64,000 bases of DNA. It comes from Crocodylus rhombifer (taxonomy: Eukaryota; Chordata; Crocodylia; Crocodylidae). The notes beneath the pieces are model-generated. The model had not been told where the DNA came from and did no database searches. It saw only the letters and a program-made list of their open reading frames with translations. The stretch covers positions 62,001 to 126,000 of the forward strand of contig JAVSML010001153.1 of NCBI GenBank assembly GCA_038503035.1. The letters run 5' to 3'. Numbering within the stretch: the first letter of the stretch is position 1; every line of letters begins with the position of its first letter. Shown here piece by piece: positions 59,395 through 61,917 of the stretch. Made by a program: the position numbers and the translations under genes.

Positions 59395-59791
59395 CAGTAG
59401 TATATAGGGTACACCTCTCATCAAACTGGCGAGCCCGCCCCACTGACAGGTGCCCCGTCCCTGGCCACACCCTTAGCTCTGCCCCAACCACACACCCCTA
59501 GACACGCCCCCTGCCCACCATCTTGGCTGCCATATTGTAGTCAGAAGTCCCACCCCTAACCCCTGACCTCTGGGACCATTTTGGGGGTGTTTCTGACTCT
59601 GAAACAGCAAGTCCTACCTAATCACATGCCCTTATGACATCAGAAGTCCTGCCCCAGCCCCCATGTTGATGGCTATCTTGGCTGCCATGTTGCATCCCAG
59701 AACACCCTGTTCCCATCACATGGTCTGTTACCTCATCAGGCCCAACCCCCTAGGCAGCCATGTTGGCAACCATCTTGGCTGCCATGTAAAC
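59395..59791 (+). repeat. Left terminal inverted repeat
   Basis: Pairs with the right arm. It holds CATCTTGGCTGCCATGTT-type segments, the inverse of ATGGC-rich motifs in the right arm, and a CACATGGTCTGTTACCTCA segment. Confidence 0.82.
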
Positions 59792-59977
59792 CCAAGAAAC
59801 AGTAAGTAAAAGATATTGTAATGAAACAGACAAGATATCTCTATGTATAGAGAGTTAAAAATGGTTACATACATACCAACCCCTGTCTTGGTCTGACCCC
59901 TCTGAAGCTTTTCTGGTCTAAAAGTTGGGCTGCTCTGCTGTAATAAGGACTCCAATAAACAGTAAGTCAAAAAAAGT

Positions 59978-61289
59978 TTATAAAAATATATAAAAACCTA
60001 TGACTACATAGAACCTGGTGTCATGAATAACACCATGTAAAGCAGCATGTGGGTCTCCAGCAAAATGAATATGGTTTATAATCGCCACACCCTGAGCTAA
60101 ATGTTTCTCAGTGAGGCATAGACAATCCATAGAGTACCCTAATGCAATTATAGCTTTTAGAATACTCTCCATACACAGTTCAATACAAAGTTCCCGAATT
60201 GTCTGTTTTATATCCTCATCCATTTTGTCCATACGTTTGTGGCTTGCTTGACCTGGTACATTTAGGAGGCAGCCCCTGCAGACTTCAAAAAGTCTCTCCC
60301 TCAAACAATATTTCAGTATGCCATAACAACAAACATGTACAAGAGATTTCATGAGCCTTTTATGACCCCACGGTGAGACAGGTCCTGTTCGTTCAATTCC
60401 TAGTTGTCTTCTAAAGGCCACAGCACTCTCTTCTTCTGAAGCACCAGGACTCTGATTGTCACAAAAACAGCTTCTCTTTCCAAGTACCAAGGTTATAGGG
60501 CTGCTGCTGCATTGTCTTTCTGTTGTCATGAGAAAGGCTTCATCAAGCTGCAGAGGAATTTTAAAGGAGAAACTCTGTTACCCATTGTTTAAGGAGTCCG
60601 TAGTCAATTCCTGCCCCCACCCTGCTACCAATACTCCCTAAAGACCACCTCCCCCCCACTCCTCTCCAAGTTCAAGACACTCACCAGTGGCTCTGTCCCC
60701 CCAGAGACATCTTCTTCTCCCTCAGCATCCAATATGAGGCACCCCTCTTCTCCAGAATCCTCAGCATCAGCTCTGGGCATCTGACCACCAAACATCTCAG
60801 GAAATGCTCAGGTTAGGGGGCTACTGTCTCTAATCTCCCCCTCTTCAGAACTATCACTTTGATAGGGTTTTCTCGGCAGACATCTGTCAGGCCTTCGTGG
60901 TAAGGCAGGGACAAAGGGCCTTACTGGTGTGGTAAAAGAATCCCTGTTTGCTCCCTGCAAAGAGATGATATAGTTAACACAGGCCCACCCTGCTACCATA
61001 GAAAGCCACTCCCTCCAAAAAATTTTTAAAAATCTAGGTTAGTTACCTCAGCAGAGCCCTTGGGATTTAGCCTGTCTGCCACTCCCAGACTCTCTGCCTG
61101 TGGCTCTGATGCACTCTGTTGCGGGTCTGCCATGGTCCCTGGATCTGTTTTGGGAGTCCAGGAATCTCTCTCAACCACTGAGATCTCATCCATAGCGCTG
61201 CTGAGAAAGGTTTGAACAGTGCCTGAGGCTTCCAAAGTATAAGAATCCATATTAGTTTCTGTCTGTATTAGCATGGTCTCAGAAAACAT
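59978..61289 (-). CDS. Three-exon candidate protein of the inverted-repeat element, one internal TGA
   Basis: Exon 1 is open from upstream of 61448 to 61047; the first in-frame ATG is at 61289. Donor GAG|GTAACT, acceptor CTTTGCAG|GGA (60955/60954). Exon 2 is 60954-60685, donor CTG|GTGAGTGT. Acceptor CCTCTGCAG|CTT (60548/60547), exon 3 is 60547-59978. Introns are 92 and 137 bp. All junctions are phase 0 and all three frames agree. One TGA lies in exon 2 at 60810-60808; an ATG follows in frame at 60795. Exon 2 is acidic (SDSSEEGEIRDSS, EDSGEEG) after a basic RRPDRCLPRK. Exon 3 has many Cys and His residues, including VCCYGILKYCLRE and VCRGC, suggesting metal binding. No transposase, helicase, polymerase or capsid motif is seen. 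Function unknown. No AATAAA was seen just downstream. Confidence 0.5.
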
Positions 61290-61469
61290 GCAGCCTGGTT
61301 TGGAGTGTTTCCAACAGGATTTAGACAAAAGGCAGGCCAGGGACTGCCAGCCTAGGTCCCACCCCCACCCTATACATGCCCTGATTGGTTTGACACCATG
61401 CTCAGGGAGAGGAGTTTCCAAGTTAAGGAGTGGCTGTTCTGATGTCACAGACCATGTGATGGGAACAGG

Positions 61470-61917
61470 TTGTTCTGGGACCTAACATGGCGGCCAAGAT
61501 GGCCACCAACATGGCTGCCTGGGGGGGTTGGGCCTGATGAGGTCACAGACCATGTGATGGGAACAGGGTGTTCTGGAATGCAACATGGCGGCCAAGATGG
61601 CTGCCAACATGGGGGCCAGGGCAGCACTTCTGGAGTCATAAGGGCATGTGATCAGGCAGGACTTCCTGTTTCAGAGTTAAAAACACCCCCAAAATGGAGA
61701 ACTGCTGGGGGCAAGGGTGGGGTTTCTGGTGGCAAAGGTCAGGGCTTGGAGCAGGACTTCTGACCACAAGATGGTGGGTAGGGGCATGTGTTGGGGGCAT
61801 GGTTGGGGTGAAACTAAGGTGTGTCCTGGGCATGGCTAGGGGCAGGGAAAGGGGCAGGGCACCTGTCAGTGGATGGGGCTTGTTAGTTTGATGAGAGGTG
61901 TACCCTATATACTACTG
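61470..61917 (-). repeat. Right terminal inverted repeat
   Basis: Inverse of the left arm. It contains two tandem copies (about 61455-61520 and 61545-61610) of a unit with GACCATGTGATGGGAACAGG, TGTTCTGG and ACATGGCGGCCAAGATGGC; the left arm has the equivalent of one full unit plus part of another. It lies upstream of the minus-strand gene and so could hold its promoter. TATATAG occurs near the very end. Confidence 0.82.

What the first reader, a model, noticed from the sequence alone, without database searches (positions are those of the whole stretch)
59395..61917. Unclassified 2.5-kb inverted-repeat element carrying a spliced gene
The element is complete: roughly 400-bp inverted ends starting CAGTAGTATATAGGG and a 4-bp ACCA duplication. 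Between the ends are three minus-strand open segments joined by two consensus GT-AG introns (92 and 137 bp), all in phase 0. Three independent frames agreeing across two predicted junctions is unlikely by chance. The predicted product (acidic middle, Cys/His-rich end) is no transposase family I know. A short spliced regulatory-type gene between long terminal repeats is more like a small DNA virus or virus-derived transposon than a typical MITE.
Basis: partly seen in the sequence, partly recalled or inferred. Interest (0 to 1): 0.88.

Follow-up and report, generated by a model that had tools for sequence, protein, structure and literature searches.

The report
Shrunken Maverick virus-transposon with spliced gene
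The 2.5-kb element is an old, broken, internally deleted copy of a Maverick (a virus-like jumping DNA of vertebrates) that kept its two ends and one gene that looks spliced, a gene found in many Mavericks of this reptile genome although a survey of vertebrate Mavericks saw no introns in intact ones.

Summary
The inverted-repeat element and its three-exon minus-strand gene are real, but details change. The ends are AGTAGT...ACTACT with a 6-bp duplication GACCAC, not CAG...CTG with ACCA, and exon 2 has an in-frame stop. These ends are the published vertebrate Maverick (Polinton) signature. In the window's own unnamed 2.2-Gb genome (crocodilian-like by protein matches) a 15.3-kb copy (C7181) has the same ends and a 6-bp duplication, and encodes integrase, PolB and adenovirus-type protease by Pfam. 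The window element is therefore an internally deleted, decayed Maverick. The gene is not filler: 69 of 113 listed gene loci have a Maverick integrase within 20 kb, always convergent (0.27 expected). NCBI models from two alligators match and one turtle model matches in part; dN/dS between two subfamilies is about 0.40. Splice sites are kept in nearly all copies that could be read, most tellingly for intron 2. In the window's subfamily the full TIR contains exon 1 and intron 1 and ends at the intron-1 acceptor. PMC8097293 reports no introns in intact vertebrate Mavericks, so this is a new variant of a known kind. No RNA evidence was available and the protein has no recognised relatives; an early regulatory role is inference.

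The parts
59390..59395 (.). left target-site duplication GACCAC
   Evidence: identical to 61917-61922; same 6-bp arrangement in 7 other two-ended copies, 4 exact and 3 with one mismatch
59396..59787 (+). left TIR, starts AGTAGTATATAGGG; shorter than the ~0.9-kb TIR of a full-length copy
59788..60020 (.). deletion-junction zone; 59791-59971 matches sequence lying downstream of the accessory gene in longer copies, in permuted order; 59972-60020 mostly unassigned (one match in L018)
   Evidence: 25 of 38 held loci (some overlapping) hold the adjoining TIR stretch and none continues across the junction to 59800 or beyond; L028 aligns as far as 59798
60021..60547 (-). accessory gene exon 3 (frame open to 59981, but homology ends at about 60021): LDEAFLM start, CFC, CRGC; the H-x-C of relatives reads HKR here
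   Evidence: 84% identical to P0002 and 44% to P0003
60548..60684 (-). intron 2, 137 bp
   Evidence: donor GT in 6 of 7 and acceptor AG in 7 of 7 window-type copies with a readable site; 8 of 8 and 8 of 8 in the 8 best-scoring P0003-type copies, 141-146 bp
60685..60954 (-). exon 2 (acidic); in-frame TGA at 60808-60810
60955..61046 (-). intron 1, 92 bp; inside the full-length TIR, whose inner edge falls at this intron's 3' splice site
   Evidence: donor GTAA in 18 of 18 aligned ends (L016, L017, L027 of 21 sources not alignable there); after the acceptor 9 gene-end and 8 integrase-end sequences, one deleted
61047..61277 (-). exon 1 (inside full-length TIR); several possible ATGs
60955..61916 (-). 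right TIR as defined by the integrase ends of other copies (presumed promoter region, exon 1, intron 1)
61917..61922 (.). right target-site duplication GACCAC

Best explanation
59396-61916 is an internally deleted, non-autonomous, mutationally dead copy of a crocodilian-type Maverick (Polinton). Shown: the Maverick end motif and 6-bp duplication; the same ends on a 15.3-kb copy with integrase, PolB and adenain-type protease; the retained gene lies convergent with a Maverick integrase, at the opposite end, in dozens of loci; its protein was constrained while two Maverick subfamilies diverged; the TIR reaches into the gene's 5' part. Strongly suggested but not shown at RNA level: the gene is spliced. 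Inferred: full-length Mavericks are copied by protein-primed replication and inserted by their integrase; the TIR acts as a promoter module present at both ends, driving the accessory gene from one end and the integrase unit from the other; the accessory protein works as an early regulatory or host-interaction protein, in the way adenovirus terminal early genes do. About 12 kb of core genes is missing from this copy; whether it was lost before or after insertion is not resolved.
For: Ends and duplications: matching the published (AGT)2//(ACT)2 motif with 6-bp duplications (PMC8097293). C7181 (15.3 kb, exact duplication): rve 1.1e-10 and Chromo, Peptidase_C5 1.2e-5, DNA_pol_B_2 4.7e-7. C63 (left end eroded): DNA_pol_B_2 5.8e-13 and 1.5e-8, Peptidase_C5 9.1e-5, integrase fragment below cutoff. 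C9129 (14.5 kb) and C5390 (15.1 kb): two-ended with exact duplications, gene at one end and integrase at the other (their other genes were not tested). Linkage: 69 of 113 merged gene loci (150 of 185 matches were listed) have an integrase within 20 kb, all convergent, 0.27 expected. Splice sites. NCBI models P0002, P0003, P0013 and turtle P0011. dN/dS 0.40 between subfamilies in 56 pairs. TIR border.
Against: No RNA evidence; gene models are predictions. Intron-1 donor conservation is weak evidence: 27 of 70 interior columns are also fully conserved, mean 0.90. Exon 1 shows no clear codon-position signal (pairwise 0.096/0.095/0.104). dN/dS within window-type copies is 0.94. Some copies have intron 2 open in frame. 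44 of 113 gene loci had no listed integrase nearby. In the P0003-type the TIR border lies ~97 nt inside the coding part, not at a splice site. The window's internal junction was seen in no other held copy, so it may be a one-off deletion. Capsid and ATPase frames gave no significant Pfam hit. No fold, Pfam or solved-structure relative supports the proposed protein function.
Confidence: 0.93

Rival explanations
1. The element is a distinct short DNA transposon (or small DNA virus) that moves as a 2.5-kb unit and carries its own regulatory gene.
For: Complete ends, target duplication and a constrained gene.
Against: The seven other two-ended copies have other sizes (2.0, 3.4, 4.4, 4.8, 14.5, 15.1, 15.3 kb); no held copy shares the window's internal junction; the same ends and gene occur in core-gene-bearing Mavericks. 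The genome-wide junction query did not complete (tried).
Confidence: 0.06
2. The accessory gene is a captured or co-opted host gene rather than a Maverick gene.
For: Intron structure, not seen in surveyed vertebrate Mavericks; alligator models join other exons to exon 3 (P0005, P0008, P0012).
Against: No database hit is an evident stand-alone host family (genomic places of these models not checked); fixed place relative to the integrase; dN/dS near 1 within the window subfamily argues against host function of those copies. An ancient capture cannot be excluded.
Confidence: 0.1
3. The introns are not real: the gene is unspliced, or the sequence is non-coding with open frames.
For: Some copies have intron 2 open in frame (long frames around 326-364 aa); intron-1 donor no better kept than much of the intron; no RNA data here.
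Against: GT/AG at intron 2 in 6/7 and 7/7 window-type and 8/8, 8/8 P0003-type copies; CTAAC before the acceptor; independent NCBI models use the same joins; protein-level constraint between subfamilies.
Confidence: 0.06

Closest known systems
Vertebrate Mavericks/Polintons (Barreat and Katzourakis 2021, PMC8097293; abstract, found passages, section 7 and section 14 part 1 of 2 seen)
   Same: (AGT)2//(ACT)2 ends, 6-bp duplications, TIR length within 46-1447 bp, integrase and PolB frames on opposite strands pointing inwards, accessory regions at the ends, presence in Crocodilia, mostly degraded copies
   Different: Window copy lacks the core genes; its accessory gene has introns while the survey saw none in genes of intact elements; the TIR contains the gene's 5' part
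Polinton-like viruses of protists (PMC12220804; found passages seen)
   Same: TIR-bearing relatives; introns are reported in some
   Different: The introns named in those passages are self-splicing group I introns, not GT-AG ones
Adenovirus terminal early regions (recalled)
   Same: Spliced regulatory gene next to an inverted terminal repeat of a linear protein-primed DNA genome; related protease
   Different: No sequence or fold similarity of the protein was found; functional analogy only
Adintoviruses (recalled; paper 10.1093/ve/veaa055 not held)
   Same: Maverick-type animal viruses with accessory genes
   Different: Not compared by sequence here; no LxCxE motif in P0001-P0004, P0011 or P0013

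Membership tests
Maverick/Polinton | (AGT)2//(ACT)2 end motif | tested here: met
   22 of 24 window-type ends located read AGTAGT (found with the window's own end as pattern, so biased; two spurious internal matches in L019 and L022 set aside; L009 and L022 ends not found)
Maverick/Polinton | 6-bp target-site duplication | tested here: met
   8 two-ended elements: 5 exact, 3 with one mismatch; C63, C55 and C7176 dropped for lack of two readable ends
Maverick/Polinton | retroviral-type integrase, family B polymerase and adenain-like protease in a full-length relative | tested here: met
   C7181: above Pfam cutoffs
Maverick/Polinton | the same genes in the window copy itself | tested here: not met
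   the gene frames of 59396-61916 gave no core-gene match; it is a derivative, not a complete Maverick
Maverick/Polinton | capsid proteins and packaging ATPase in full-length relatives | tested here: inconclusive
   candidate frames had no significant Pfam hit (proteins 3, 4, 7, 8); assignment by eye only
[quoted passage not shown]
   accessory gene has conserved intron 2 sites and NCBI models with introns; core genes not examined for introns; no RNA data
Short autonomous transposon or small DNA virus | several copies sharing size and internal junction | tested here: inconclusive
   no held copy shares the junction, but the whole-genome query did not complete

The most novel reading that the evidence does not exclude
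Crocodilian (and, from one partial gene model, turtle) Mavericks possess an adenovirus-like early region: a spliced regulatory gene whose promoter and first exon lie inside the TIRs, so that both genome ends carry the same switch, one feeding the accessory protein and the other the integrase. As far as the listings show (a partial library), neither this protein family nor such use of the TIR has been described.
Probability: 0.32. Interest if true: 0.62.

Novelty: new variant of a known kind. Interest (0 to 1): 0.46.

Why it matters
Vertebrate Mavericks are thought to be ancient aquatic DNA viruses (PMC8097293), and they are described as intronless. An accessory gene with introns, under protein-level constraint and tied to the TIRs in dozens of loci, gives a testable handle on how Mavericks control expression, and suggests that splicing is used in this lineage. 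It also explains why a short terminal remnant of a Maverick can look like an unknown spliced mini-transposon.

Tried and rejected
4-bp duplication and CAG terminus: rejected by the other copies. WSC (E 0.0062, below cutoff), REV (E 0.0033 in P0003, below cutoff) and importin/NC2 matches (E 0.24 or worse): treated as chance. Relatives in viral contigs: none in three scans. PHROGs: none. Third protein search: only P0004 and P0014. Structure of P0002 unusable (pLDDT 38); C-terminal domain P0004 moderate (pLDDT 66, pTM 0.62, the other four models 40-44), with 0 of 61 PDB and 0 of 85 BFVD matches at E<=0.001. LxCxE, PxDLS and PPxY: none in P0001-P0004, P0011, P0013. Rfam and tRNA: none in the window. 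Papers PMC4316615 and PMC6431247: passages only, nothing used; other papers seen as listings (one search returned 0). One search timed out and was redone; one search stopped on an error after six loci and was completed. On re-checking I lowered the novel case from 0.35 to 0.32 and raised the no-splicing rival from 0.04 to 0.06, because of the intron-1 control and the flat exon 1.

Full report
What is there. The window element has perfect 20-bp inverted ends and TIR arms found by repeat search. Read from other copies in the genome, its limits are 59396-61916, AGTAGTATATAGGG...CCCTATATACTACT, flanked by GACCAC on both sides. Among the 8 elements whose two ends could both be read, the 6-bp duplications are exact in the window (GACCAC), C7181 (CACAGT), C9248 (CATGGG), C9129 (GGTATA) and C5390 (ACCCAC), and differ at one base in C472, C7643 (L017) and C4685 (L021). 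C63 was left out because its left end is eroded, C55 and C7176 because only one end was in hand.

The gene. On the minus strand, exon 1 ends at 61047, exon 2 spans 60954-60685 and exon 3 starts at 60547, all in phase 0. Exon 2 carries an in-frame TGA at 60808-60810. A protein search with exon 3 found an NCBI model of Alligator sinensis (P0002, 332 aa, 84%) and one of A. mississippiensis (P0003, 281 aa, 44%). P0002 aligns to all three segments, joined at the predicted sites. An alignment search (7996 candidates scored) gave 12 proteins in all, the rest being mostly alligator models or fragments and one turtle model, P0011 of Trachemys (E 5.9e-8, 37% over 42% of the query). Three alligator models (P0005 named C8orf88 homolog, P0008 TMEM26, P0012 RNase H) join other exons exactly at the exon-3 acceptor; P0009 and P0010 (TMEM64) join further upstream.

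The family. The window's genome (unnamed, 2.2 Gb) answered three searches. With the left TIR, 64 matches were returned, 40 of 149 candidates scored. Some TIR pairs lie about 15-18 kb apart. C7181, two-ended with an exact duplication, encodes integrase with chromodomain, adenovirus-type protease and PolB by Pfam, all above cutoff (a second PolB piece was below it). C63 has PolB and protease above cutoff and an integrase fragment below it. Frames that may be capsid and ATPase had no significant hit. This is the Maverick/Polinton gene set. [quoted passage not shown] passages, section 7, section 14 part 1).

The gene belongs to Mavericks. P0003 gave 185 matches in the genome, 150 of them listed (138 of 476 candidates scored), the best-scoring at 81% identity, and the integrase 143 (136 of 2005 scored). 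Merging the listed rows gives 113 gene loci and 130 integrase loci; a few near-identical contigs are counted twice. 69 of 113 gene loci have an integrase within 20 kb, all convergent, none in another orientation, against 0.27 expected; 44 have none listed. So the gene sits at the end opposite the integrase.

Splicing and selection. Of 21 sources (window and L009-L028), 18 ends could be aligned at donor 1: GTAA in 18 of 18. But 27 of 70 interior intron-1 columns are also fully conserved (mean 0.90), so this says little alone. Acceptor 1 is AG in 9 of 9 gene ends, donor 2 GT in 6 of 7 and acceptor 2 AG in 7 of 7. In the eight best-scoring P0003-type copies intron 2 is 141-146 bp with GT and AG in 8 of 8, and CTAAC precedes the acceptor in all eight; some copies have this intron open in frame. 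Exon-3 dN/dS (Nei-Gojobori) is 0.40 between the two subfamilies (56 pairs, dS about 1.0, near saturation), 0.60 within P0003-type (28 pairs) and 0.94 within window-type (21 pairs). Codon-position differences are about equal in window-type exon 3 (0.088/0.098/0.105) and in pairwise exon 1 (0.096/0.095/0.104), and rise at position 3 in exon 2 (0.084/0.118/0.208 against the window). The protein was constrained while Maverick lineages diverged; window-type copies look decayed after insertion. TIR-TIR identity in the window is 87%, so the copy is old if the TIRs began identical.

TIR and gene overlap. In C7181 both ends share about 0.9 kb that contains exon 1 and intron 1. Directly after the intron-1 acceptor the copies fall into two groups, 9 gene-end and 8 integrase-end, with one locus deleted. 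In P0003-type elements (three gene/integrase pairs compared) the TIR reaches about 97 nt beyond the ATG, and in 4 of 4 integrase ends a stub of about 42 codons lies just before the integrase. The TIRs therefore carry the gene's 5' part to both ends; that they promote both units is inference. The window TIRs hold 11 of 16 matches (up to one mismatch) to AANATGGCNGCC in 64 kb, including all 7 exact ones, against 4.4 expected in the whole window; YY1 as the likely binder is recalled.

How the window copy arose. Its left TIR stops at about 59787 and joins sequence that in longer copies lies downstream of the accessory gene (59791-59971, in permuted order), and roughly the last 19 of 194 codons of the gene are lost at about 60021. 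Of 38 held loci (some overlapping) 25 hold the adjoining TIR stretch and none continues across the junction to 59800; L028 aligns to 59798. The genome-wide junction query did not complete (tried). Whether the deletion preceded insertion is open.

Function. The C-terminal domain is predicted all-helical at moderate confidence and matches no known fold. A basic stretch in P0003, acidic runs, and a C-x2-C...H-x-C pattern in P0002-P0004 (last C lost in the window copy), with the position next to the TIR, suggest an early regulatory protein by analogy with adenoviruses; this is inference.

Noticed in passing
P0005, P0008, P0012 and P0009, P0010: Alligator models named C8orf88 homolog, TMEM26 and an RNase H protein join other exons exactly at the exon-3 acceptor of this Maverick gene, and TMEM64 isoforms join further upstream: recurrent exonisation or annotation artefacts.
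   Followed up: partly
L009:4363-5912 and L012:2853-4298: Both long Maverick copies carry a reverse-transcriptase (CR1-like by eye; Pfam RVT_1 tested in L012 only) insertion near the accessory end, at different places relative to the gene, so probably independent.
   Followed up: partly
59525-59788 and 61484-61617: Clusters of AANATGGCNGCC (YY1-like, name recalled) in both TIRs: 11 of 16 window matches, all 7 exact ones.
   Followed up: partly
L011:1206-1500: At the integrase end of a window-type copy the shared exon 1 and acceptor are followed by a short open frame (VGDVLMENFQN...) and an AATAAA, possibly a second small gene sharing exon 1; a GT often follows the AG directly at such ends.
   Followed up: partly
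43850-44419 (-), 53428-55384 (+): Frames in the window that look like CR1 LINE reverse transcriptase, by eye.
   Followed up: no
25001-26000 and 32001-37000: GC-rich stretches (0.53-0.63) in a window otherwise mostly 0.33-0.50 GC.
   Followed up: no
61440-61523 and 61538-61621: 84-bp direct repeat (87%) inside the right TIR; repeat matches vary between copies.
   Followed up: no
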